Origin: Acidimicrobiales bacterium
Lineage (GTDB): Bacteria > Actinomycetota > Acidimicrobiia > Acidimicrobiales > Aldehydirespiratoraceae
DNA: 64,000 nt
Assembly (NCBI GenBank): GCA_033344915.1
Contig: JAWPML010000001.1
Span: 4,296,263-4,360,262 of the forward strand
Direction: 5' to 3'
Below the pieces are notes generated by a model. That model was given only the letters and a program-made list of their open reading frames with translations. It was not told where the DNA came from and ran no database searches. The translations under genes were made by a program, and so were the position numbers. This document shows, in pieces, positions 24,900 through 36,871 of this stretch (the stretch's first letter is position 1; every line of letters starts with the position of its first letter).

Positions 24900-24995
24900 G
24901 GCGAATCCTCTCTATAACAAGTGACTGTTTGTGATAGTAGGCGGGTCGGAAATGTAAAGCAAGTAAATCTTCGTATTAGAAGCTACGCTGGCGGG

Positions 24996-25712
24996 GTGAA
25001 CGAACACACCGATGACGTCGATCCGCTGTTCGCGCTGCGAGCGTTGGCTGAGCCGAAACGGCGGGCGCTCTACGACTATGTGGTTGCCGCGGGCACCTGG
25101 GTCGGCCGCGACGAAGCGGCTGATGCCACCGGTCTCCAGCGGGGTCTGTCGGCCCATCACCTCGATCGCCTGGCACTCGACGGTCTCCTGGAGGTCGACT
25201 ACCAGCGCCTGAGCGGCCGCACCGGGCCGGGCGCCGGTCGACCCGCGAAGGTCTACCGCCGCACCCGCAGGGACTTCAGCGTCACGCTCCCGCCGCGCCA
25301 CTACGAGTACGCCGGCCGCATCCTCGCCGACGCGATCGTCGAGGCCCAGACGTCGGGCCGTGATGTCTCCGACACCGTGGCGGCGGCAGCACGCGCGGCC
25401 GGCCGCCAACTCGGGGCTGCGATCCGACAGCGTGTCGACGAGACCGGGTCGTCAGGCGCGGGCAGGGCCGTCGTGCTCGACGTGCTTCGCGAACACGGCT
25501 TCGAGCCGGAGCAACAAGACGATGGCGTCGTGCGCCTCCGCAACTGTCCGTTCCATCAGCTCGCGCAGCGACAGACCGATCTCATCTGCGGCATGAACCA
25601 TCTCCTCATCGACGCCGCGCTGACCGAGGCGAACGTCGGAGGCTTCAACGCCGTGCTCCAACCGGATCCCGACACGTGCTGCGTCCACCTCACCAACACC
25701 GCCAACGGCTGA
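24996..25712 (+). CDS. HTH regulator with SufR-like C-terminal Cys set
   Basis: 238 residues from GTG 24996. Winged-helix N terminus: LFALRALAEPKRRALYDYVV and RGLSAHHLDRLALDGLLEV; then GRPAKVYRRTRR, a wing often seen in SufR/ArsR-like proteins. The C-terminal part carries C in RNCPFHQLAQ, C in DLICGMNH and CC in DPDTCCV, spacing Cx13Cx29CC. SufR binds a 4Fe-4S cluster with a similar layout, so an Fe-S or redox sensor is likely. It is divergent from the DoxX-like gene across an AT-rich promoter region. The stop codon abuts the IS481 target site. Confidence 0.8.
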   Translation: MNEHTDDVDPLFALRALAEPKRRALYDYVVAAGTWVGRDEAADATGLQRGLSAHHLDRLALDGLLEVDYQRLSGRTGPGAGRPAKVYRRTRRDFSVTLPPRHYEYAGRILADAIVEAQTSGRDVSDTVAAAARAAGRQLGAAIRQRVDETGSSGAGRAVVLDVLREHGFEPEQQDDGVVRLRNCPFHQLAQRQTDLICGMNHLLIDAALTEANVGGFNAVLQPDPDTCCVHLTNTANG

Positions 25713-26687
25713 CTAGCTGTGCTCCGCGGGGAGGTTGTCCCTGAGGTTTGAGGCTGGGGTTGCCCAGCCGAGTGCTCCGTGGGATCGGTGGTGATTGTAG
25801 AAGTGGATGAACCCGCGGTAGTAGGTGGCGCGTTGGGTCTCTGAGGTCCAGGGCCGGATGTAGGCCCATTCCTCGAGCAGGATGCGGTGGAAGCGTTCGA
25901 TCTTGCCGTTGGTTTGCGGTCGCCTTGGGCGCGTCTTCTTCACCGTGGTGCCGGTGGTGTCGCATGCGGTGTGCCAGAGCTGTGAGCGGTAGCAGGGTCC
26001 GTTGTCGGTGATGACGCGTTCGCATTCGATGCCGGCGCGGTTGAACCAGTGGTTGGCGCGCAGCCAGAACTCGGCGGCGGTGAGGGCTTGTTCGTCGTCG
26101 TGGATCTCGGAGTAGACGAGCCGGGTGCGGTCATCGATGGCGGAGTGGATGTAGCGGTAACCGACGCCGGAATGGCCGCGAGTGGTGTCGTTGCCTCGGC
26201 CGTGGATGCGCCAGCCGCCGCCGTCGGGGATCGCGGCGATCTTCTTGATGTCGACGTGGATGAGCTCGCCTGGCCGGTCGCGTTGATAGCGAATGACCGG
26301 TTCGGCGCTGGCTCGGTCGCCTCGATCGAGTCGGCCCAGCCCCTCAGCTCGCAGGATGTTCTGCACCGTTGACGCGGCCAGACCCGTCTCATGCGCTATG
26401 TGATCGGCGCCCCACCGCCGCTTCTTGCGAAGACGGATCACTTCACGACGTCCCCGCGGGGACGTTTTGTTCGGTGATCGGTGAGGTCGCGATGAACGGT
26501 CCCGCAGACCACCGGGTCCTTCGGTCAGGAACCGGTCGCGCCATTTGCGCACCGTCTTCGCGTCGACCTGGAACCGCTGCGCAGTCGCCTCGATCGACCA
26601 GCCCTCTTCAAGCACACAGCCGACCATTCGGCGCCGACCATTCGGGGTCATCACCGCGTTCGGGTGCTGGGTTCTAGCGTGACTCAT
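25713..26687 (-). CDS. IS481-family transposase
   Basis: 324 residues from ATG 26687 (GGAGGG upstream). Two N-terminal helix-turn-helix units (WSIEATAQRFQVDAKTVRKW and WGADHIAHETGLAASTVQNIL) are followed by the rve core: Asp in LIHVDIKKI, Asp in VITDNGPCY and Glu in NGKIERFHRILLEEW. The tail HRSHGALGWATPASNL is typical of the family. The TAG stop is formed by the CTAG target site itself. Confidence 0.95.
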   Translation of the reverse strand: MSHARTQHPNAVMTPNGRRRMVGCVLEEGWSIEATAQRFQVDAKTVRKWRDRFLTEGPGGLRDRSSRPHRSPNKTSPRGRREVIRLRKKRRWGADHIAHETGLAASTVQNILRAEGLGRLDRGDRASAEPVIRYQRDRPGELIHVDIKKIAAIPDGGGWRIHGRGNDTTRGHSGVGYRYIHSAIDDRTRLVYSEIHDDEQALTAAEFWLRANHWFNRAGIECERVITDNGPCYRSQLWHTACDTTGTTVKKTRPRRPQTNGKIERFHRILLEEWAYIRPWTSETQRATYYRGFIHFYNHHRSHGALGWATPASNLRDNLPAEHS

Positions 26688-26805
26688 AGAGCCCTCCGGT
26701 TGAGATGTGAGTGGTGGAACACCCACAGCCTCACTCGGAGGGCTCAACCCATCGGTGGATCACCCCACCCCATCAACCCAGGGACAACGTCCCCGGTCGT
26801 CACAA
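25717..26805 (-). mobile_element. IS481-family insertion sequence, 1089 bp
   Basis: Ends match as imperfect inverted repeats: 20 of the first 27 positions agree, including GGGGA and GTTGTCCCTG. CTAG lies immediately outside both ends (25713-25716 and 26806-26809), consistent with a 4-bp target duplication and with the known CTAG preference of IS481. It sits directly after the stop of the HTH regulator gene, so no gene is visibly broken. Confidence 0.88.
26689..26745 (-). promoter_or_regulatory. Hairpin hiding the transposase ribosome site
   Basis: A 10-bp perfect stem pairs GAGCCCTCCG (26745-26736 on the minus strand) with CGGAGGGCTC (26698-26689). The second arm contains the GGAGGG ribosome site two bases before ATG 26687. 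Read-through RNA from outside would fold and hide the site; RNA started inside the loop would not. This matches known IS control by sequestration. Confidence 0.6.
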
Positions 26806-26952: not shown

Positions 26953-27354
26953 TCAGGCAACCGGGTCCTCAAGGGAGTCGCACACGCCGAGCTGGCTGGC
27001 ATGGACGCGCGCGACGTTGCGGGCCAACGTGCGGGCCCGGTCGGTGTTGGGCCCGACCCACCCGGCGTCGAGCGTGTGTTCGAACAACGTGAGCCAGCGG
27101 GCGAAGTGGTCGGTGGAGAGGGGAGCGACCGAGTGGACGGTGGCGTGGCGGGCGAAGGGATTGCCGGTGTAGCCCTCGAGTCCGAGGAGGGCGCGGACCC
27201 AGAAGGCGGTGATCTTGGGGAGATGGTCGTCCCAGTCGACCCGAGCAACGTCGTTGAAGACGGGCCCCAGAAGATCGTCCCGATCGACGTCCCCGTAGAA
27301 GCGGCGGACCATCTCGGCGATCTGGCCGACGGTGTCGAGGTCGGGCGTGCTCAT
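26953..27354 (-). CDS. Group III truncated haemoglobin
   Basis: 133 residues from ATG 27354, overlapping the VOC stop by ATGA. Group III pattern: IAEMVRRFYGDVDRDDLLGP, FNDVARVDWDDHLPKITAFW, NPFARHATVHSVAPLSTDHF and FARWLTLFEHTLDAGWVGP. The proximal His is in TDHFARWL. These haem proteins are linked to NO or oxygen chemistry. A 21-bp Rrf2-type palindrome lies upstream of the VOC-globin operon, matching one at the nsrR-like gene, so joint NO-responsive control is likely. The 143 bases downstream to the IS481 end hold nothing recognisable. Confidence 0.92.
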   Translation of the reverse strand: MSTPDLDTVGQIAEMVRRFYGDVDRDDLLGPVFNDVARVDWDDHLPKITAFWVRALLGLEGYTGNPFARHATVHSVAPLSTDHFARWLTLFEHTLDAGWVGPNTDRARTLARNVARVHASQLGVCDSLEDPVA

Positions 27355-27731
27355 GTCGTGAGGCTCCAGAGTTCGATGCGGTTGCCCTCGGGGTCATGGA
27401 ACTCGACATAGTCGGTGCCCCATCGCCGGGCGATGTCGCTGACGGGGATTTCGATCTTGCGGAGCGTCGCGCGGGCGGCTGCGAGATCGGGAACCTGCCA
27501 GCTGAGCGTGATGCCTGCGCCGTGACCGGCCTCGATGCTGGCCCGGGCGGCATCGGCGAGGCTGAGGTGGGCGGCGTCCCCGAGCGACACCTCGACGAAC
27601 CAGTCGGTTCGGTGGGTGACGCTCAGGCCCAGCGTGTCGGCATAGAAGGCAACGGTGTCGGCCCACCGGTCGCAGTACAGGATCGTATTCGTCCTGACAA
27701 TGGTCAGCGTCGACGTCGGGTCTCCTTGCAT
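27351..27731 (-). CDS. VOC family protein co-transcribed with globin
   Basis: 126 residues from ATG 27731, chosen over ATG 27737 because GGAAGG is then eight bases away. It reads LTIVRTNTILYCDRWADTVA, a VOC opening with Cys/Tyr in place of the usual first metal ligand; the middle has the ITLSWQVPDLAAA strand and the end DPEGNRIELWS. The absent first His suggests a changed or missing metal site. First gene of a two-gene operon with a truncated globin, divergent from the Rrf2 regulator. Confidence 0.75.
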   Translation of the reverse strand: MQGDPTSTLTIVRTNTILYCDRWADTVAFYADTLGLSVTHRTDWFVEVSLGDAAHLSLADAARASIEAGHGAGITLSWQVPDLAAARATLRKIEIPVSDIARRWGTDYVEFHDPEGNRIELWSLTT

Positions 27732-27756
27732 CGGCATTGCCTTCCGGGCTGGGGAG

Positions 27757-27777
27757 CAGTCTCATAGTATGGGACTG
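27757..27777. promoter_or_regulatory. Rrf2-type palindrome upstream of VOC-globin operon
   Basis: AGTCTCATAGTATGGGACT (27758-27776) differs from the motif at 27913-27933 by one internal base. The likeness continues for about seven bases (GAAGTT), so besides being an operator it might be a remnant of a duplicated Rrf2 gene start. It lies about 25 bases before the VOC start. Confidence 0.6.
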
Positions 27778-27912
27778 GAAGTTGTAGGCAAACGTGGTTC
27801 CCGAGGGTGGAGTCGGCGCGGCTGGCCTCAACGTTGCTCGCCGTCGCGCCGCGACCAGAACCGCTGATCGGAATCAATCGGCCCGGCTGCTTGCCTTCAG
27901 AACCGATCGGAG

Positions 27913-27933
27913 TAGTCTCATAGTATGCGACTA
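27913..27933. promoter_or_regulatory. Rrf2-type palindrome overlapping the regulator's start codon
   Basis: TAGTCTCATA-G-TATGCGACTA, a 21-bp dyad with one mismatched pair, contains the ATG (27925) of the Rrf2 gene. The arrangement fits autoregulation with a very short or no leader. Confidence 0.65.
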
Positions 27934-28332
27934 GAAGTTACCCGGAAGAGCGATCTCGCAGTGCGCTCGTTGCACGCGCTCGCGACGAGCCCCGACCGGC
28001 TGAAGGGTCCGGCCCTGGCCGAGGCGGTCGGATCCACACCCGGGTTCGTCTCGCAGGTGTTGACGCCGTTGGTGCGGGCGGGGTGGGTGCGTTCCGACCC
28101 CGGTCCGGCCGGGGGATACTCCCTGACCGCGGATCTCGACCAGGTCACGGTGCTGGACGTGATCGAGACGATCGAGGGCCCCACGGACTCGGGCCGGTGT
28201 GTGCTCGCCGACCGCCGCTGCAACGAGGGTGGGACCTGCGCGCTGCACTTCCCCTGGCTGCGGGCCCGGGCCCAGCTGTTGAGCCAGCTGGAGGCCGTGT
28301 CGGTCGCCGAGGCCTCGGTGCTCACGTCATGA
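27925..28332 (+). CDS. Rrf2 family Fe-S regulator, NsrR-like
   Basis: 135 residues from ATG 27925. It has MRLEVTRKSDLAVRSLHALA, the Rrf2 winged-helix opening, then VGSTPGFVSQVLTPLVRAGW, GPAGGYSLTADLDQVTVLDV and the cluster-binding loop C-x6-C-x5-C (GRCVLADRRC, GGTCALH). NsrR with a 4Fe-4S cluster senses nitric oxide; IscR senses Fe-S status. Context (Ric repair protein, globin, nitrate reductase-like genes) favours NO sensing. It starts a long plus-strand operon, with its stop overlapping the YwiC-like gene. I leave the symbol blank because NsrR and other Rrf2 members cannot be separated by eye. Confidence 0.9.
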   Translation: MRLEVTRKSDLAVRSLHALATSPDRLKGPALAEAVGSTPGFVSQVLTPLVRAGWVRSDPGPAGGYSLTADLDQVTVLDVIETIEGPTDSGRCVLADRRCNEGGTCALHFPWLRARAQLLSQLEAVSVAEASVLTS

Positions 28333-29162
28333 CCACGACCGAGTCCAGCGCGCCCGAATCTCTGGCGACGACGTCCGATCCCCCCAGTCGCCCGGGCCGT
28401 GTCTCGTGGAAGTCGGTCGCCCTGCCGACCGAACACGGTGGTTGGAGTCTGACAGCCGAGCCGGCGTTGCTCGGTCTCCTCGTGGCGTGGTCGTGGCCGG
28501 GAGTGGCGTTGGGTGTCGCCGCCATGGTCGCTTTCCTCGCCCGCACGCCGCTGAAGCTCGTCCTGGTCGACCGCTTCCGCAGGCGCTGGCTTCCCCGGAC
28601 CCGGCTCGCGGCGCAGATCGCCGCCGTCGAGGTGCTGCTCCTCGCCGGCTTCGTGGGGTATGCCGCGTTCGCGGCCGAACCGTTCTGGCTGCCGCTCGCG
28701 GTGGCTGCGCCGCTGGTCGCACTGGAGTTGTGGTTCGACATGCGCAGCCGCGGTCGCCGCCTCATCCCCGAGTTGGCCGGATCGATCGGCATCGGGTCCG
28801 TCGCGACAGCGATCGCCCTCGCCGATGGCGCGTCGACACGTGTGGCATGGGGCCTGTGGGTCGTGATCGCGGCCCGATCTGCGGCCGCCATCCCCTACGT
28901 GCGCACCCAGGTCCTGCGGACGAGATCGTCCGGCGCGCCGAACTGGCACAGCGACGCCGCCCAACTCGCCGCGGCCGCGGCGACGACGGTCGGCTGGGCG
29001 TTCGATCTCTTGCCGACCGCTGCGCTCGTCACAATCGTGGTGCTGATCGGCGTCAATCTGGTGGCCCTCCGCCTGGCGCCCAAGCCCCCGGCGGTGATCG
29101 GTACGCAACAGATGATCTTCGGCATGGCCGTGATCCTCACCACCGCCCTCGCCCTGAGCTGA
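28329..29162 (+). CDS. YwiC-like membrane protein
   Basis: 277 residues overlapping the Rrf2 stop by four bases. SVALPTEHGGWSLTAEPALL is the signature start of YwiC-like proteins, followed by seven or eight membrane helices, WFDMRSRGRRLIPELAGSI and HSDAAQLAAAAA. In Bacillus subtilis ywiC lies beside the nitrate respiration genes; biochemical function is unknown. Its place here in a nitrate/NO operon repeats that association across phyla. Confidence 0.85.
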   Translation: MTTTESSAPESLATTSDPPSRPGRVSWKSVALPTEHGGWSLTAEPALLGLLVAWSWPGVALGVAAMVAFLARTPLKLVLVDRFRRRWLPRTRLAAQIAAVEVLLLAGFVGYAAFAAEPFWLPLAVAAPLVALELWFDMRSRGRRLIPELAGSIGIGSVATAIALADGASTRVAWGLWVVIAARSAAAIPYVRTQVLRTRSSGAPNWHSDAAQLAAAAATTVGWAFDLLPTAALVTIVVLIGVNLVALRLAPKPPAVIGTQQMIFGMAVILTTALALS

Positions 29163-29186
29163 CCCCCGAACCAAGGAGCCGTCCTG

Positions 29187-29909
29187 ATGTCGACCATCGA
29201 TTCCCACCTCACACTGGCCGAACTGGTCACCACCCACCCCGAGTTCGCCGCACCCCTCGACGCGCTCGGTCTCGATTTCTGCTGCGGCGGACAACAGCGC
29301 CTCGACGAGGCGGTCTTCGAGGCCGGACTCGATCTGGAAGCCGTCACGGCCGAGTTGGCCGCGACCGTTCCGACGACGGTGGCCGGAGCCGAACCCGAGT
29401 GGGAAGGCATGGCGGGACTGGTCGACCATCTCGAATCGACCCACCACGCCTACCTGCGTGTCGCGTTACCGCGGCTCGCCGCGTTGGCCGACAAGGTTGC
29501 CGGCGTGCACGGAGCGAACCATCCGGAGCTGGTCGAGGTCGTTTCTCTCGTCCGCGAGATACGCGCGGATCTGGAGCCACACCTCGGCAAGGAGGAGCAG
29601 GTGCTGTTCCCCATGATCCGGGAGCTCGCGGCGGCCACGACCGCACCGGCATTTCACTGCGGCTCGTTGGCCAACCCCGTGCGGGTGATGCTGGACGACC
29701 ACGATCGAGTTGGTGACCTCCTGGCCGCGATCCGGGCCGCCACCGGTCAGTACCGGGTTCCCGACGATGGCTGCGGCAGCTATCACGCCCTCTACTCCGG
29801 ACTCGCCGAGCTCGAAGCGGACACCCACATCCACGTCCACAAGGAGAACAACGAGCTGTTCCCGATGGTGCTCGAGGCCGAGAACGCGTTGACCGCGGCG
29901 GCCCGATGA
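29187..29909 (+). CDS. Iron-sulphur cluster repair di-iron protein (Ric/ScdA/YtfE type)
   Basis: 240 residues. The N-terminal ScdA domain (DUF542) has LDALGLDFCCGGQQRLDEA with C32-C33. Then comes a hemerythrin-like four-helix bundle with His/Glu ligands in LVDHLESTHHAYL, ADLEPHLGKEEQVLFPMI, VMLDDHDRVGDLL and THIHVHKENNELFPM. Ric proteins rebuild Fe-S clusters damaged by NO and peroxide and may reduce NO. Cytoplasmic. It overlaps the cupin gene by ATGA. The full ligand set suggests an active protein. Confidence 0.95.
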   Translation: MSTIDSHLTLAELVTTHPEFAAPLDALGLDFCCGGQQRLDEAVFEAGLDLEAVTAELAATVPTTVAGAEPEWEGMAGLVDHLESTHHAYLRVALPRLAALADKVAGVHGANHPELVEVVSLVREIRADLEPHLGKEEQVLFPMIRELAAATTAPAFHCGSLANPVRVMLDDHDRVGDLLAAIRAATGQYRVPDDGCGSYHALYSGLAELEADTHIHVHKENNELFPMVLEAENALTAAAR

Positions 29910-30334
29910 GTGGCGGCGAGCTCGGCGGCGACCCGCCATGCTGGGCTCACCTCCTCGACGACGACGCCGGTGAGGACGCGCTGGTCGTAGATCTCGGAGC
30001 GGAACCCTCGCGCTCGGGCGGGGCGGTGTGGAGCCTGCCCCACGGCGGTGACCTGGACGCCAATCTCGTCCGGCTCGACGCCGGCGAGGAGATCGGTGCC
30101 CATGTGAACCGTGAGGTCGACGTGCTGATCGTCGTCCGAGGCGGTGACGGCGAACTCGTGGTGGACGGTCGGCGGCGGCGGCTGGGCCCCGACCATCTTG
30201 CCCTGGTCCCGAAGGGATCGATGCGGTCGATCGTGGCCGAGGACACCGGGATCGTGTATCTCAGCGTGCATCGACGACGCGGCCCGCTCGGCATCACACC
30301 GCGGCCCGAGAAGGAGGATCCTGATGAACCCTGA
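29906..30334 (+). CDS. Cupin-domain protein
   Basis: 142 residues. LPHGGDLDANLVRLDAGEEI then GAHVNREVDVLIVVRGGDGE and LALVPKGSMRSI form the two cupin boxes, with only part of the usual His ligand set (His in GAHVN, Glu in REVD). The single visible His in box 1 and loss of the box 2 His suggest altered metal binding. A HxR-type end (SVHRRRGPLGI) follows. It overlaps both neighbours, so it is made together with Ric and the PAS protein. Confidence 0.75.
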   Translation: MSGGELGGDPPCWAHLLDDDAGEDALVVDLGAEPSRSGGAVWSLPHGGDLDANLVRLDAGEEIGAHVNREVDVLIVVRGGDGELVVDGRRRRLGPDHLALVPKGSMRSIVAEDTGIVYLSVHRRRGPLGITPRPEKEDPDEP

Positions 30335-30758
30335 ACCCTGGCCTGACGACCGAACGCTCGGGCAACTCGTCCACGGACTCGCCGATGCCGTGATCATCTG
30401 TGATCCCGATGGTGTGATCGTCTACTGGAACGATGCCGCCGAGCGGATCTTCGGTTGGCCGGCGAGCGAAGCGCTCGGCGAGTCCCTGGACCTCATCATC
30501 CCCGAGAAGCAACGTCGCGCCCATTGGGACGGCTACGAGCGGGTGATGGCCAGCGGCGAGACCCGCTACGGCGGTGATCTGCTGCGGGTGCCGTCGCTGC
30601 ACGCCGATGGTGAGCGCCGCTCCATCGCGTTCACCGTCAGCCTGATGAAGAACGCGACGGGCGCCGTGACGGGGATCGCCGCCGTCGTGCGCGACGAGAC
30701 CGAGCGATGGGCGGAGGAACGAGAACTCCGTCGGCAATTGCGCGAAGGTGGAGGCTGA
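30324..30758 (+). CDS. Small stand-alone PAS protein, FixL-like haem-binding features
   Basis: 144 residues from ATG 30324 (GGAGG upstream), starting ten bases inside the cupin gene. It is one PAS domain (ADAVIICDPDGVIVYWNDAA, FGWPASEALGESLDLIIP) plus a C-terminal coiled helix. The helix RRAHWDGYERVMASGETRYG carries H67 and Y71 in the RxxHxxY arrangement that holds haem in FixL-type oxygen sensors. There is no kinase or output domain. A gas-sensing subunit acting on a neighbour is an inference. Confidence 0.8.
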   Translation: MNPEPWPDDRTLGQLVHGLADAVIICDPDGVIVYWNDAAERIFGWPASEALGESLDLIIPEKQRRAHWDGYERVMASGETRYGGDLLRVPSLHADGERRSIAFTVSLMKNATGAVTGIAAVVRDETERWAEERELRRQLREGGG

Positions 30759-31866
30759 TGACCACCGTGGCGGACTCGCCGGCGAAACCGACCCACCGTG
30801 CCGGCCGATCCTCGCTGCTCGACGACGAGGTCGACGCCGGCTCGGTCGCCTGGGGTCTCGCGGCGGTGTCGCTCCTGCTGGTCGGCGTCTACTTCGGGTC
30901 CGGCGGGATGCGCTGGTTCGACGCTGCGCTGTCGGGCTATCTCCTCGGCGTGCTGTTGGCGACCTTCGCTGTGGTCTACCGGTACCGCGTCTGGCTGCAA
31001 CGGCCACCGACGAGGTTGCTGAACCGGCGCGGATGGCAGGCCCTCACCCGCCGCGGCAAGCGAGCCTCCAACACTGCGGCACTCGGCGGGCTCGTCGCCA
31101 CGAACCTGGCCGGCCAGCGGTTCATCCGTCATCGCTCGACCAGCCGGTGGATGGCTCACCAGCTGGTGTTCTGGGGATGCATCCTCGCCGGGCTGGTGAC
31201 CTTTCCGCTGACGTTCGGGTGGCTGCATTTCGAGTCGGTCGGTCAGGACTCCGAGCGCTATCGGGCCTACGTCTTCGACATCGGCACGATGGACTTCGGC
31301 TCTCGGAGCCTTCTCGGGTTCGTGGTGTTCCACCTCCTCAACATCTCGGCTGTGTTGGTCATCGCCGGCGTCGTCGTGTTCCTCTACCGGCGGCTCAACG
31401 ACCCTGGCGCAATCGCGGTGGAGCGCGCCGGTGACTTCGCGGCCCTCGCCGGACTGTTCGCGGTGTCGGTCACTGGCCTGTTCCTCACCGCGTCGAGCCT
31501 CTGGCTCGAAGGCCGGGGCTACGTCTTCTTGAACACGGTGCACGCCCTTACGGTGATCCTCGGGCTGATGTACATCCCGTTCGGCAAGCTGTTCCACATC
31601 TTCCAGCGCCCCGCGAACATCGGTGTGCACTTCTACCGACGAGAAGCCGAGGAGGGGGAGGCGCAGACCTGTCGTCGTTGTGGCGAGGGGTTCGCTTCGC
31701 AGCTGCAGATGGACGATCTCAAGCTCGTGCTGCCGCAGGTCGGGTTCGACTACTCCATCCCCGAGACGGCGGATCGTCCGGGCGGGAACTGGCAGGACAC
31801 CTGTCCGCGCTGCCGCCGCCGCGATGTGGCGTTGACCCAGACGAGCAGAGTGGACGGATTCGGCTG

Positions 31867-31867
<1 letters not shown>
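30758..31867 (+). CDS. NarI-like membrane cytochrome b with C-terminal CxxC pair
   Basis: 369 residues sharing one base with the PAS stop (TGATG). Five or six membrane helices carry His at 134 ([10 protein letters not shown]), 192 (FVVFHLLNI), 262 ([10 protein letters not shown]) and 280 ([11 protein letters not shown]); the last motif is typical of the NarI/DsrM superfamily, which takes electrons from quinol through two haems b. Unusually, a soluble tail of ~85 residues has CRRC (305-308) and CPRC (349-352), a likely zinc- or Fe-binding ribbon. It is probably the quinol-oxidising anchor of the Mo enzyme encoded next. Confidence 0.8.
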
Positions 31868-34115
<2,248 letters not shown>

Positions 34116-34119
<4 letters not shown>

Positions 34120-34724
34120 TCGGCGGCCAGATGTTCGTCATCGACCAGAGCCGCTGTATCGGCTGCGAGGCTTGTGTGCACGCGTGCGCGGAGTGCGGCA
34201 CCCACCGCGGCACCTCGTTGATCCATCTCGAGCCGGTCGACCCGGGCGTCTCGACCCAGACTGCACCGATGGTGTGCATGCACTGCGAGGACCCGACCTG
34301 CGCCAAGGTATGCCCGGCCGACGCGATCAAACAGAACGAAGCGGGAGTGGTGCAATCGGCGCTCAAGCCCCGCTGCATCGGCTGTTCGAATTGTGTCCTC
34401 GCCTGCCCGTTCGGGGTGCCGCGCTACTTCCCTGAACCCGACCAGATGATGAAATGCGACATGTGCTTCGACCGCACGTCGCAGGGGCTCGCCCCGATGT
34501 GTGCGTCCGTCTGTCCGTCCGAGGCGCTCTGGTACGGCACACCCGAGGAGTTCGCCGAGCGACGGCCGGGGCAGCTGACGAACGACTTCCGATTCGGCAA
34601 CCAGGACGTCCGGACACACGTCGCCACCGTCGTCAACGACCGCAACCGGGGCCCGTTGGACGTCGCGACAATGACTGTGCGCGAGCGGTGGCAGGACGAC
34701 CCGTTCGGGCTCGGAGCCGGGTAG
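34116..34724 (+). CDS. Four-cluster ferredoxin subunit of the Mo enzyme
   Basis: 202 residues overlapping the catalytic gene by ATGA. Cys blocks in order: [39 protein letters not shown] and [11 protein letters not shown] plus CASVCPS, enough for four 4Fe-4S clusters, as in NrfC/HybA/NarH-like electron-transfer subunits. It would connect the membrane cytochrome with the catalytic subunit. No Tat signal, so the complex should face the cytoplasm. Confidence 0.92.
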
Positions 34725-34738
34725 GAGAGGAGACGCCG

Positions 34739-35260
34739 ATGTCCACATCGCCACAACCGGGACCCGACGAACAGGACGCCGGCACCCCCGTCTGGCTGAA
34801 CGACTTCCCGCACACCGCCGCAGGCGAGGAGGCGGTCACCCGCCGGGCGTTCACCCGCTACCTCGTCGCCGGTTCCGGCGTCTTCGCCGCGGCCACGGTC
34901 GGCGCAGCCGCCTGGACCTCGTTGCGTGACCTCGATGACGGCACGCCGCAAGCAATCGTCGAGCTCGACCAGGTCCCCGAGAACGGCGCCCATCTGTTCC
35001 GTTACCCCGGGCCCCACGACCCCGCGGTGCTGATCCGTCTTCCCGAGGGTGAGCTCGTCGCGTACAGCCAGAAATGCACCCACCTCGGTTGCGTCGTGTT
35101 TTATGAACCCGACGAGACCGAGCTCGTGTGCCCGTGTCACGAGGGGATCTTCGATGCCGCCACGGGCGCCGCGATCGCCGGGCCGCCCGAACGGGCCCTT
35201 CCGACCATCGAGGTCGAGGTTCGTGACGGCACCGTCTGGGCGATCGGAGTGACGCGATGA
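34739..35260 (+). CDS. Rieske 2Fe-2S protein with Tat-type signal anchor
   Basis: 173 residues from ATG 34739 (GGAGAGGAG upstream). A twin-Arg signal (VTRRAFTRYLVAGSGVFAAA) precedes the Rieske fold with CTHLGC (113-118) and CPCHEG (131-136). The high-potential cluster domain would sit outside the membrane, opposite the catalytic subunit. In haloarchaeal nitrate reductase operons a Rieske protein and a cytochrome b accompany the enzyme, so a role in quinol oxidation is plausible. The stop overlaps the next gene. Confidence 0.92.
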   Translation: MSTSPQPGPDEQDAGTPVWLNDFPHTAAGEEAVTRRAFTRYLVAGSGVFAAATVGAAAWTSLRDLDDGTPQAIVELDQVPENGAHLFRYPGPHDPAVLIRLPEGELVAYSQKCTHLGCVVFYEPDETELVCPCHEGIFDAATGAAIAGPPERALPTIEVEVRDGTVWAIGVTR

Positions 35261-35466
35261 CGAGCATCGGCACCGGGGAGACCAAACGCACCAGCGCCGT
35301 CTTCGTCTATGTCGTGCTGATCCTCGCGCTCCAGGTGTTCCTGCTTGTGGTGTCGCTCGAGGCGTTCCAGGCCGACGACGAGGCACTCGCCTGGCCGGCC
35401 GCGGCGCTCTCGGTCGGGCTGTTCGCCACCACCCTTGCCTTCGCTCGGCTGCTGCGGCGTGACTGA
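35257..35466 (+). CDS. Small two-helix membrane protein of the operon
   Basis: 69 residues overlapping the Rieske stop by ATGA. Two membrane helices (SAVFVYVVLILALQVFLLVV and LAWPAAALSVGLFATTLAFA) are joined by an acidic loop (QADDEA), with a basic end LLRRD. It resembles the single small accessory subunits found beside cytochrome complexes in hydrophobic plan only. The overlap with both neighbours supports it being real. Confidence 0.7.
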   Translation: MTSIGTGETKRTSAVFVYVVLILALQVFLLVVSLEAFQADDEALAWPAAALSVGLFATTLAFARLLRRD

Positions 35467-36091
35467 ACCCGAGCGACCCGGACTCGGACCGGCCAGCCCC
35501 GGACCCATCGGTGGGGACATGGCGGCGATCCTGTGGGGCCTCGCCCGCCGGTTCCGCATCCCTGTGCTCACCGATCGCCACGACAACACGAAGGTCATGG
35601 GCCTGTTCGCCGGGGTCAACGGTCTGATCGCGATCGCGATCATGTCGGCGGTCGCGTTCGTCACCGGGCAACCCTTCATCTTCCCGTCGCTCGGCCCGAC
35701 CGCGTTCCTGCTCTTCTACACGCCGACCAACCCGGCAGCGTCGCCCCGCAACACGATCATCGGGCATGCCGTGGGGGCCGCAGCGGGCTATGTCTCCCTC
35801 GTGGCTTTCGGCCTCACCGACGACGCGCCGGCGCTCGCGACCGAGGTCACCGGTGGCCGTATCGGTGCCGCGGCGCTGTCGCTCGCGCTGACGAGCGCGT
35901 TCATGGTCTGGCTGCGCGCTCCGCACCCACCGGCCGGCGCAACCACGCTCATCGTGTCGCTCGGGATCCTGCGCGAACCGGACCAGCTCGCCATCCTCAT
36001 GCTCGCCGTCGCGGTCCTCACGCTCCAGGGTTTTGCGATCAACCGACTTGCCGGAATCGACTACCCGGCCTGGCGAACGGTCTCGTCATGA
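35459..36091 (+). CDS. HPP family membrane protein
   Basis: About 210 residues from GTG 35459, overlapping the previous gene by eight bases; ATG 35519 is a later alternative. HPP signature APHPPAGATTLIV and QPFIFPSLGPTAFLLFYTP are clear, with five membrane helices. HPP proteins of cyanobacteria and chloroplasts move nitrite, which would suit a nitrate-reducing operon by exporting or importing nitrite. That function is carried over from the family, not shown here. Confidence 0.88.
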   Translation: MTEPERPGLGPASPGPIGGDMAAILWGLARRFRIPVLTDRHDNTKVMGLFAGVNGLIAIAIMSAVAFVTGQPFIFPSLGPTAFLLFYTPTNPAASPRNTIIGHAVGAAAGYVSLVAFGLTDDAPALATEVTGGRIGAAALSLALTSAFMVWLRAPHPPAGATTLIVSLGILREPDQLAILMLAVAVLTLQGFAINRLAGIDYPAWRTVSS

Positions 36092-36507
36092 GCCGCACGC
36101 GCCCCAATACCCACCGCGGCCGTGATCTCGACACGCGGGCCGAGGTCGCCGAGTTCGTCACCCGCTTCTATCGGGAGATCGCGCAGGACGAACGCTTCCA
36201 TCTGTACTTCGAGACCCTCGCCCGGGTCGACTGGCACGCGCACACGCTGGAGCTCACGGATTTCTGGGCCGGGTTGCTGCTCGGCGAGCCGTACGGCCCC
36301 GCCGAAGACGTCATCGAAGCCCACCGTTGGCTCCACGACAGCGAGGCGTTCGACGCGGATCTGTTCGGTCGATGGCTCGAGATCCTCTACTCGACGCTCG
36401 ACGAGGGCTGGACCGGACCGGTGGCGGAGTTGGCCCGCAAGCGCGGCCGGGGCTTCGTCCGGGCGATGGCGAAACGGTTCGGCGATGTCGACCTCCAGGC
36501 CGGCTGA
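36088..36507 (+). CDS. Group III globin-like protein lacking proximal His
   Basis: 139 residues overlapping the HPP stop by ATGA. The globin plan matches the globin at 26953-27354: VAEFVTRFYREIAQDERFHL, VDWHAHTLELTDFWAGLLLG and DLFGRWLEILYSTLDEGW. Where the other copy has TDHFARWL with the haem-ligating His, this one has ADLFGRWL, so His is replaced by Leu. Haem binding through another residue (His in EAHRWLHDSEAF) or loss of haem are both possible. Last gene of the operon, convergent with a monooxygenase gene. Confidence 0.8.
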   Translation: MSRTRPNTHRGRDLDTRAEVAEFVTRFYREIAQDERFHLYFETLARVDWHAHTLELTDFWAGLLLGEPYGPAEDVIEAHRWLHDSEAFDADLFGRWLEILYSTLDEGWTGPVAELARKRGRGFVRAMAKRFGDVDLQAG

Positions 36508-36550
36508 GCGGGTCTCGCGCCCTGGCGGGTGACGTCGTCGGCCGCCCTGT

Positions 36551-36871
36551 TCATCCGAACAGTGGTCGTACATCGGCGACCTCGTAGCGCGAGAACTCCG
36601 GTTGGCCGTCCAGGACATCGCCCAGCAGCTCCGAGAAGGCGAGGAAGTGAGGCGCTGCGAAGTGTCGCTCCAACGACTCGCTCGACTCCCAGTGCTCGAA
36701 GATCCGGACGGTATTCGGATCCTCGATGTCGATCGAGAAGCGATAGTCGACGCAGCCGGGTTCGTCGCGTGACGCCTCCGCCATGCGGCTCGCCGCTTCG
36801 AGCGCGGCGTCCAGCCGGTCGGCTCTGACTCGGGCACTTCCAGCGATCACGATCATCATCCACTGTTGCAC
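36551..36871 (-). CDS. ABM-domain quinol monooxygenase-like protein
   Basis: 106 residues from GTG 36871 (ATG 36859 is possible). It has MMIVIAGSARVRADRLDAAL, then EPGCVDYRFSIDIEDPNTVR, FEHWESSESLERHFAAPHF, the single-module ABM fold that dimerises and oxidises quinols without a cofactor. Small cytoplasmic protein at the end of a minus-strand group with SDR, MarR and redoxin genes. Confidence 0.85.
   Translation of the reverse strand: MQQWMMIVIAGSARVRADRLDAALEAASRMAEASRDEPGCVDYRFSIDIEDPNTVRIFEHWESSESLERHFAAPHFLAFSELLGDVLDGQPEFSRYEVADVRPLFG

What the first reader, a model, noticed from the sequence alone, without database searches (positions are those of the whole stretch)
27757..36507. Rrf2-headed operon joining a quinol-linked Mo reductase with nitric-oxide defence genes
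Twelve plus-strand genes with nearly continuous stop/start overlaps combine a NsrR-like regulator, YwiC, Ric, cupin, PAS, NarI-like cytochrome, Nas/Nap-type Mo subunit (Cys as likely Mo ligand), ferredoxin, Tat-Rieske, a 2TM peptide, HPP and a globin-like protein. The catalytic part lacks a Tat signal while the Rieske has one, so an assimilatory-type enzyme seems attached to a respiratory quinol pathway with the sensor and NO repair built in. I know of the parts but not of this combination.
Basis: partly seen in the sequence, partly recalled or inferred. Interest (0 to 1): 0.78.

Follow-up and report, generated by a model that had tools for sequence, protein, structure and literature searches.

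The report
Widespread undescribed quinol-linked nitrate reductase operon
A bacterium carries twelve tightly packed genes that most likely let it breathe nitrate through an unusual membrane enzyme while protecting itself from toxic nitric oxide; the enzyme's gene set recurs in many bacterial phyla, and our literature searches found no description of it.

Summary
The twelve genes are real and nearly all overlap. They join two separable cassettes. Cassette A (rrf2-ywiC-ric-cupin) also occurs without the reductase in two related genomes. Cassette B (NarI-fold cytochrome b, Nas-type Mo subunit, ferredoxin, Tat-Rieske, DUF6755) is widespread: 42 of 46 well-flanked loci have all four partners, labelled as eight phyla, plus a Deinococcus plasmid. 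The Mo subunit has Cys-Met and TGQxNGQGxRE in 83 of 83 module sequences and no Tat signal; it forms a clade with a NasA that sits beside nirBD, apart from formate dehydrogenases. The Rieske twin-arginine is kept in 64 of 64 complete copies. In 37 of 46 loci exactly one of three unrelated anion transporters accompanies it, in none two. So the substrate is very probably nitrate, reduced inside. New: a palindrome AGTCnCATAnTATGnGACT spans the rrf2 start codon; it occurs only twice in the genome, both here, and recurs at orthologous starts, with the palindrome kept where the start codon is GTG. The regulator is Rrf2-family but fails the NsrR model. Activity, electron route and NO response are inferred.

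The parts
27758..27776 (.). operator-like palindrome 1, AGTCTCATAGTATGGGACT, between the divergent glyoxalase gene and rrf2; lies in a partial duplicate of the rrf2 5' end
   Evidence: with palindrome 2 the only sites in the 4.48 Mb genome at up to 2 mismatches
27914..27932 (.). operator-like palindrome 2, AGTCTCATAGTATGCGACT, overlapping the rrf2 start codon
   Evidence: recurs at the starts of rrf2 orthologues
27925..28332 (+). Rrf2-family regulator with C-x6-C-x5-C-x-L-H (likely Fe-S)
28329..29162 (+). YwiC-like membrane protein
   Evidence: PF14256, 75.2 bits
29187..29909 (+). Ric/YtfE/ScdA-type di-iron iron-sulfur cluster repair protein
   Evidence: TIGR03652 over cut-off
29906..30334 (+). 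cupin-like protein; relatives occupy the same place in the stand-alone cassettes
30324..30758 (+). single PAS-domain protein
30758..31867 (+). NarI-fold cytochrome b subunit with invariant H134, H262, H280 and a C-terminal CxxC...CPxC domain
31867..34119 (+). Nas-type Mo catalytic subunit, no Tat signal, Cys-Met at the Mo site
34116..34724 (+). NarH/DmsB-type ferredoxin subunit with conserved Cys for about four [4Fe-4S] clusters
34739..35260 (+). Rieske protein with conserved twin-arginine N-terminus
35257..35466 (+). DUF6755 two-helix membrane peptide
   Evidence: PF20540 over cut-off; relatives
35459..36091 (+). HPP-family membrane protein, probable nitrite/nitrate transporter
   Evidence: PMC7438415 passages
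36088..36507 (+). truncated-haemoglobin-like protein (group III kin)
27351..27737 (-). divergent glyoxalase-fold protein, possibly under palindrome 1
26953..27354 (-). second truncated haemoglobin (group III kin); its start overlaps the end of the glyoxalase gene

Best explanation
The operon encodes a membrane-bound, quinol-linked nitrate reductase whose Nas-type Mo subunit works in the cytoplasm. Electrons from (mena)quinol pass through the NarI-fold cytochrome b and the ferredoxin subunit to the Mo site; an exported Rieske protein and DUF6755 are regular parts of the complex. HPP moves nitrite or nitrate across the membrane. The enzyme, and nitrite chemistry by a NirK-like protein elsewhere in the genome, yields NO. 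An Rrf2 regulator with a likely Fe-S cluster binds a palindrome over its own start codon; when NO damages the cluster, repression lifts and Ric (cluster repair) and truncated globins (NO removal) are made together with the reductase. Shown: gene content, conservation, palindrome, tree, fold, transporter association. Inferred: nitrate as substrate (about 0.88), quinol as donor (0.75), cytoplasmic active site (0.8), NO as signal (0.6).
For: Cys-Met and TGQxNGQGxRE in 83 of 83 module sequences; 6 of 8 nitrate reductase references have Cys-Met, while the five formate dehydrogenase references have Cys-His, Sec-His or Cys-Gln with RGQ/RGH. Module clade 100/100; with D. grandis NasA (between nirBD and narK) and one further protein 100/100; formate dehydrogenases separate, 100/100. 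One of SLAC1 (14), NarK-like (13) or HPP (10) within 7 kb in 37 of 46 loci, none with two. NirB lies just upstream of the module in L109, NirK directly upstream of cytb in L068. NarI fold Z 10.6-11.2; H262/H280 spacing of 18 equals NarI H187/H205 (recalled). Rieske twin-arginine 64 of 64. Of 16 module genomes one has NarG over cut-off and two NirB. Ric within 6 kb in 9 of 26 and 4 of 33 loci. Palindrome: two sites in the own genome; 15 sites in 16 other module genomes vs 6 for the reversed control, 9 of the 15 at rrf2, ywiC or cytb starts, four of these nine not known when the pattern was made.
Against: No activity, transcript or binding data. The Mo subunit is below the NasC cut-off (789 vs 1100 bits). 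Two annotated actinobacterial nitrate reductases (L129, L131) have Cys-Thr, so Cys-Met is not universal among nitrate enzymes. Nine of 46 loci have none of the three transporters. The NarK name rests on one representative under the TIGR00886 cut-off (191.5 vs 311.7). Ric is absent near the module in 17 of 26 and 29 of 33 loci, so NO defence is an add-on. A Rieske outside and a Mo site inside is hard to wire: Rieske potentials are usually above those of b hemes (recalled). The regulator fails the NsrR model. The right half of the palindrome is coding in rrf2 copies, several sites pair only at 5-7 of 9 positions, and the pattern was drawn from sites that are then counted.
Confidence: 0.68

Rival explanations
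1. Arsenite-oxidase-like export: the Mo and ferredoxin subunits lack their own signal but ride out with the Tat-bearing Rieske, so nitrate (or another oxyanion) is handled on the outside. (The odds of these rivals overlap with each other and are not meant to sum to one.)
For: In Aio-type enzymes the Rieske subunit carries the Tat signal and the large subunit does not (recalled). Rieske twin-arginine invariant, Mo subunit without one. Aio Rieske chains are among the PDB matches.
Against: Inner-membrane anion transporters accompany the module in 37 of 46 loci, needless for an outside enzyme, above all in monoderm Actinomycetota. The cytochrome has the NarI fold with a C-terminal CxxC domain, placed on the inner side if it is oriented like NarI. 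Mo subunit far below the AioA cut-off (140.9 vs 359).
Confidence: 0.13
2. Assimilatory nitrate reductase that merely takes electrons from quinol; nitrite goes to ammonium.
For: Closest reference is a NasA beside nirBD; NirB lies just upstream of the module in L109; NirB over cut-off in 2 of 16 module genomes, plus a fragment at a contig end in G065.
Against: No NirB over cut-off in 14 of 16 module genomes, own included; the own genome has a single NIR_SIR protein, possibly a sulfite reductase; NO-repair genes and a NirK neighbour (L068) point to dissimilation.
Confidence: 0.15
3. A formate dehydrogenase or other Mo oxidoreductase unrelated to nitrate.
For: Formate dehydrogenase structures are the best PDB matches; TIGR01591 scores 606 bits.
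Against: Cys-Met rather than Cys/Sec-His; separate clade; NasC model scores higher (789); nitrate-type neighbours.
Confidence: 0.04
4. Chance neighbourhood: a nitrate reductase transferred beside an unrelated stress cassette, with no functional link.
For: Each cassette occurs alone; no close relative of the module's Mo gene was found in the 36 genus and family relatives searched; an IS481-like transposase gene (name by recall) lies at 25713-26747.
Against: rrf2, ywiC and ric lie upstream of the module on the same strand in L035, L053, L058 and L060; Ric near the module in Armatimonadota and Acidobacteriota loci too; unbroken overlaps in the window.
Confidence: 0.12

Closest known systems
Assimilatory NasC/NasA (Bacillus/Deinococcus type)
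   Same: Catalytic subunit type, Cys-Met site, no export signal, transporter nearby
   Different: Known Nas take electrons from ferredoxin, flavodoxin or NAD(P)H proteins (recalled); here a cytochrome b, NarH/DmsB-type ferredoxin, Rieske and DUF6755 are regular partners. Scores below the NasC cut-off.
NarGHI respiratory nitrate reductase
   Same: NarI-like quinol cytochrome, multi-cluster ferredoxin, cytoplasmic Mo site, NarK
   Different: Catalytic subunit is Nas-type with Cys, not NarG with Asp (Asp recalled); extra Tat-Rieske and DUF6755; CxxC domain on the cytochrome
Bradyrhizobium narK-bjgb-flp-nasC operon (PMC4724949; outline and section 25 read)
   Same: Nas-type reductase, NarK and a NO-detoxifying globin in one operon
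   Different: That system is for assimilation, with Flp proposed as an NAD(P)H-linked donor and regulation by NasS-NasT (section heading); the operon name lists no membrane cytochrome, Rieske, Ric or Rrf2
Haloarchaeal Nar with Rieske and cytochrome b partners (recalled)
   Same: Rieske plus cytochrome b feeding a nitrate reductase
   Different: NarG-type enzyme on the outer side; a different catalytic subunit
NsrR / IscR / RsrR regulators
   Same: Rrf2 family, three-Cys motif near the C-terminus; best PDB match is annotated only as an Rrf2 regulator (6y45; RsrR by recall)
   Different: Fails the NsrR and IscR cut-offs; Cys spacing C-x6-C-x5-C; a different palindrome from the E. coli and Streptomyces NsrR sites (recalled)

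Membership tests
NasC (NCBIfam NF047855) | score over curated cut-off 1100 | tested here: not met
   789 bits; D. psychrotolerans module 796; D. grandis NasA beside nirBD only 649
Nas/Nap nitrate reductases | Cys followed by Met at the Mo site and a TGQ...GxRE segment | tested here: met
   83 of 83 module sequences; 6 of 8 nitrate references share both, L129 and L131 do not
Formate dehydrogenase alpha | TIGR01591 cut-off; Sec/Cys-His at the Mo site | tested here: not met
   605.8 vs 666 bits; Cys-Met; separate clade
NapA | cut-off and Tat signal | tested here: not met
   271.8 vs 930.6 bits; no Tat-like N-terminus (1 of 83 has an RR, mid-segment)
NarG | TIGR01580 cut-off | tested here: not met
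   67.7 vs 1084 bits; best NarG match in the own genome is this gene, E 4.4e-8
NarI fold | heme b membrane subunit fold | tested here: met
   NarGHI chains C lead Foldseek (E 0.03-0.1, prob 0.97-1.00) and score Z 10.6-11.2; M. smegmatis EtfD ties, Z 11.4; sequence just under the Pfam cut-off. These Z lie under the about 13 that the tool advises for helical bundles
NsrR | NCBIfam NF008240 cut-off | tested here: not met
   22.8 vs 182 bits
NsrR | Fe-S cluster that reacts with NO | not testable with these tools
   C-x6-C-x5-C-x-L-H kept in the window and the seven orthologues compared
RIC iron-sulfur repair | TIGR03652 cut-off | tested here: met
   213.0 vs 204.7
Group III truncated haemoglobin | sequence kinship to a solved member | tested here: met
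   P0013 E 2.8e-12, P0007 E 2e-4 to 2ig3; P0007 has no Pfam match
Aio arsenite oxidase | AioA cut-off | tested here: not met
   140.9 vs 359
HPP nitrite transporter | nitrite transport | not testable with these tools
   PF04982 met; transport role in cyanobacteria and chloroplasts reported in PMC7438415, which cites Maeda 2014 (passages)

The most novel reading that the evidence does not exclude
The complex is a split quinol oxidase: as in bc1, one quinol electron goes through the b hemes to nitrate inside and the other through the exported Rieske to an outside acceptor such as a copper nitrite reductase, so two denitrification steps on opposite membrane faces are driven from one quinol, under a self-repressing NO-sensing Rrf2 switch.
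Probability: 0.08. Interest if true: 0.88.

Novelty: new variant of a known kind. Interest (0 to 1): 0.63.

Why it matters
If true, nitrate reduction in Acidimicrobiia, Holophagaceae, Acidobacteriaceae, Armatimonadota and others may be under-counted, because surveys look for narG and napA (PMC8100337 passages is one example) and treat Nas as assimilatory (PMC10100899 passages). That is inference. It would offer a candidate for a reported puzzle: Granulicella mallensis reduces nitrate without nar or nap but with a 'nasA' (PMC5900883 passages); its genome was not examined here. Against over-reading: the same paper reports a narG operon in Geothrix fermentans, so not every carrier lineage lacks a classical enzyme. 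It also offers a new electron route (Tat-Rieske plus NarI-type cytochrome to a Nas enzyme) and a simple regulator-palindrome pair to test.

Tried and rejected
NsrR label: rejected by model score. Formate dehydrogenase: rejected by site residues and tree. Uniqueness of the combination: rejected; the module is widespread and both cassettes occur alone. Sigma-70 promoter and terminator scan of 27250-36700: 0 promoters, 4 terminators vs 3.0 expected; no use. PDB sequence search with the cytochrome: nothing up to E 1. Literature on DUF6755: no paper; for YwiC 553 papers matched the string, and the 12 listed looked unrelated.

The first tree (101 rows) contained one wrong row: for L035 my script took a longer paralogue; it sat on a very long branch. 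The second tree (43 rows) dropped it and used 26 of the 83 remaining module rows. Both trees are unrooted, so whether the module is nearer to formate dehydrogenases or to Nap is not settled; D. grandis NasA is a long branch and the program warns that it meets another long branch, L007.

My gene caller misses or mislabels genes in GC-rich loci; the partner, transporter and Ric counts use direct matches instead. Those counts use the 46 of 81 loci with over 3.5 kb on both sides (the other 35 dropped as too short), and for Ric the 59 with over 4 kb upstream. In one search the weak 'NirK' rows (24-73 bits) are probably matches to a regulator fused by my open-frame reading to the L161 query; only L068 passes 100 bits. 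The distance of 59 bases between NirB and Mo in L109 printed is due to an over-long Mo frame; the cytochrome lies between. One search counted 28 RR among 83 Mo open frames because frames ran on upstream of the true start; one search restricted it to the N-terminus (1 of 83).

Operator: in the scan of 1.38 Mb (81 loci and window) there were 8 hits against 1 in the reversed sequences, one of the 8 (L068) not at a relevant start. Six of the 15 sites found in 16 genomes lie elsewhere, as many as the control gave; four of these were read (L153-L156) and two (G053:C89, G067:C54) were not. Five of the nine relevant ones were already known when the pattern was made. Only the best 80 of 415 related loci were kept by the tool.


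Full report
What is there. Between 27925 and 36507 the window holds twelve + strand genes: rrf2, ywiC, ric, a cupin, a PAS protein, a NarI-like cytochrome b, a Mo subunit, a ferredoxin subunit, a Rieske protein, a two-helix peptide, an HPP protein and a globin-like protein. Nine of eleven junctions overlap; the two gaps are 14 and 24 bp. Families were checked with Pfam and NCBIfam: the two-helix peptide is DUF6755, Ric passes its curated cut-off, and the last gene is kin to group III truncated haemoglobins, as is a second globin on the other strand at 26953-27354. The window lies in a 4.48 Mb single-contig genome, 96% complete.

Distribution. Sixty-one genomes, own included, were searched with the Mo subunit. 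Relatives at 77-90% identity occur in three genomes of other families of the same order and in none of the 36 genomes of the same genus or family, so the gene is patchy. In named genomes the tool found 415 related stretches and kept the best 80. Titles and tree labels place them in Actinomycetota (mostly Acidimicrobiia), Acidobacteriota (Geothrix, Holophagaceae, Acidobacteriaceae), Armatimonadota, Omnitrophota, Binatota, Myxococcota, Chloroflexota and Bacillota; most are metagenome bins, so single odd phyla may be mis-binned. A plasmid of Deinococcus psychrotolerans carries the same row, annotated as MFS (the cytochrome), molybdopterin oxidoreductase, 4Fe-4S, Rieske, DUF6755, MFS. Of 81 loci (80 and one from an unnamed relative) 46 have over 3.5 kb on both sides of the Mo gene; 42 of these 46 have cytochrome, ferredoxin, Rieske and DUF6755 matches within 6 kb, and the four exceptions are L097, L104, L105 and L115. 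Gene order varies outside Actinomycetota.

What the enzyme is. The Mo subunit scores 789 bits on NasC (cut-off 1100), 606 on formate dehydrogenase (666), 272 on NapA (931) and 68 on NarG (1084). In 83 of 83 module sequences the Mo ligand segment is D-(Y/F)-N-G-R-x-C-M and a second segment is TGQxNGQGxREx(G). Of eight nitrate reductase references six have Cys-Met and a TGQ...GxRE segment; two annotated actinobacterial ones (L129, L131) have Cys-Thr and NGQ. The five formate dehydrogenase references have Cys-His, Sec-His or Cys-Gln with R-G-Q/H. A careful tree of 43 rows puts the 26 module rows in one clade (100/100) and joins it with D. grandis NasA, which lies between nirBD and narK, and one protein from a relative (100/100); the five formate dehydrogenases form their own clade (100/100). 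The tree is unrooted and the D. grandis branch is long.

Substrate from company. Of the 46 well-flanked loci, 14 have a SLAC1-type anion channel within 7 kb, 13 a NarK-like MFS protein, 10 an HPP protein, none two of these, and 9 none (families of one representative each of SLAC1 and NarK; NarK under its cut-off). The window has HPP, a family with a role in nitrite transport in cyanobacteria and chloroplasts according to PMC7438415 (passages read). Three unrelated families taking turns argue for a shared anion, nitrate or nitrite, and for an inside active site. In L109 a NirB frame ends just before the cytochrome on the same strand; in L068 a copper nitrite reductase over its curated cut-off ends directly before the cytochrome. 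Of 16 module-bearing genomes, own included, one has NarG over cut-off, two NirB, with a further fragment at a contig end, and 14 a NirK-like match of 143 bits or more, one of them over the cut-off. Own: no NarG, no NirB, a NirK-like match of 252 bits (cut-off 296) far from the window, and a single NIR_SIR protein. The other Mo enzymes found in the own genome with this protein or the NasC model score 401 bits or less, the best of them with an in-frame TGA as in Sec formate dehydrogenases. So this is probably the only nitrate reductase of the cell.

Wiring. The cytochrome model (52 sequences, mean pLDDT 90.7) matches NarI of NarGHI: chains C lead the Foldseek list with modest E-values (0.03-0.1) but probability 0.97-1.00, and Z is 10.6-11.2, with M. 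smegmatis EtfD at 11.4; these lie under the 13 that the tool advises for helical bundles, but the next row falls to 7.4. H134, H262 and H280 are invariant in the aligned rows (75 of 75, 77 of 77, 77 of 77), H192 is His in 66 of 76; four Cys form CxxC and CPxC pairs at the C-terminus (72 or more of 77). That domain resembles a piece of 7z0t chain F (52 residues, Z 6.2). The ferredoxin keeps its cluster Cys in 71 of 71. The Rieske keeps its twin-arginine in 64 of 64 complete copies; one further copy, L088, begins too late to show it. The Mo subunit has no Tat-like N-terminus. The sequence therefore shows an inside-type catalytic subunit with an outside-type Rieske; how the Rieske takes part is unknown.

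Regulation. A 19-bp palindrome AGTCnCATAnTATGnGACT lies at 27914-27932 over the rrf2 start codon and again at 27758-27776. With up to two mismatches these are the only sites in the genome. In other Actinomycetota a related site lies over the start of rrf2 orthologues (L035, L053, L058, L060, L149, L150, L151), over a ywiC start (L152) and just upstream of cytb where no rrf2 match is near (L064). In L058 and L060 the start codon is GTG and the upstream half has changed with it, so 8 of 9 pairs are kept. In 16 other module genomes there are 15 sites against 6 for the reversed pattern; nine of the 15 are the above kind, of which four were new. Three cautions: the pattern was drawn from some of these sites; the right half is also coding in rrf2; and several sites pair poorly (5-7 of 9). 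The upstream copy in the window sits in a partial duplicate of the rrf2 5' end (30 of 41 aligned bases equal). The regulator keeps C-x6-C-x5-C-x-L-H in the window and seven orthologues but is not NsrR by model.

Two cassettes. In G063 (two places) and G070 the set rrf2-ywiC-ric-cupin stands in stretches of 6-9 kb with no match to the module's own genes, in one case with a globin after it and in another with a NirK-like gene (150 bits, cut-off 296) further on, beyond a mraY-like gene (by eye). Both genomes carry the module elsewhere (L060, L048). In L035, L053, L058 and L060 rrf2, ywiC and ric lie upstream of the module on the same strand, in three of them with a globin between ric and cytb; L061 has ywiC, ric and a globin there but too little flank to show rrf2. 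Ric occurs within 6 kb in 9 of 26 Actinomycetota-type loci (L035-L071) and 4 of 33 others with over 4 kb upstream; the cupin in none of the 59. The window thus fuses an NO-defence cassette with the reductase; a PAS match above 60 bits occurs in one other locus, L047.

Literature. Searches for DUF6755, nitrate reductase with Rieske, molybdopterin and Geothrix, Geothrix and nitrate reductase, NasC, Rieske and quinol, Acidimicrobi- with Rieske, Desertimonas flava and nitrate, 'novel nitrate reductase' with Rieske and a wider one showed no listing that describes this enzyme; for only 20 of 81 papers were listed. It is an open-access library, and I read only: PMC10100899 passages (NasC/NasA treated as exclusively assimilatory), PMC5900883 passages, PMC8100337 passages, PMC7438415 passages, PMC4724949 outline and section 25. 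The nearest concept is the last: a Nas operon with an NO-detoxifying globin.

Verdict. Observation confirmed. The enzyme is best read as a quinol-linked, Nas-type nitrate reductase, a new variant of known nitrate reductases, widely spread and not described in what I could search; activity, electron path and NO response remain to be tested.

Noticed in passing
window 24921-25712 (+): Winged-helix regulator-like protein with a Cys-rich C-terminal part and no Pfam or NCBIfam match; relatives (cluster c25) lie next to the cytochrome or Mo gene in L039, L046 and L047 and several kb upstream in L038, and by eye similar proteins flank the NirK genes of L157 and L161. Perhaps a second redox regulator.
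   Followed up: partly
window 25713-26747 (-): IS481-like transposase gene (name by recall) close to the 5' side of the operon, fitting the patchy distribution.
   Followed up: no
window 27750-27790: Partial duplicate of the rrf2 5' end that carries the first palindrome.
   Followed up: yes
window 36551-36871 (-): Small protein that looks like an antibiotic-biosynthesis-monooxygenase fold (by eye), convergent with the operon end.
   Followed up: no
L157 (G063 contig 123) 1845-15000: Cassette rrf2-ywiC-ric-cupin followed by mraY-like, NirK-like and regulator genes and, further on, a NarG-like frame: an N-oxide island with another reductase.
   Followed up: partly
L127 5591-6181: FmdE-family gene and a second MFS gene on the opposite strand just upstream of the module on the Deinococcus plasmid.
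   Followed up: no
L072, L075, L076, L078, L079, L081: Geothrix and Holophagaceae modules without any of the three transporters within 7 kb; five of the six have an Rrf2 gene of another kind directly upstream of cytb, L079 shows none.
   Followed up: no
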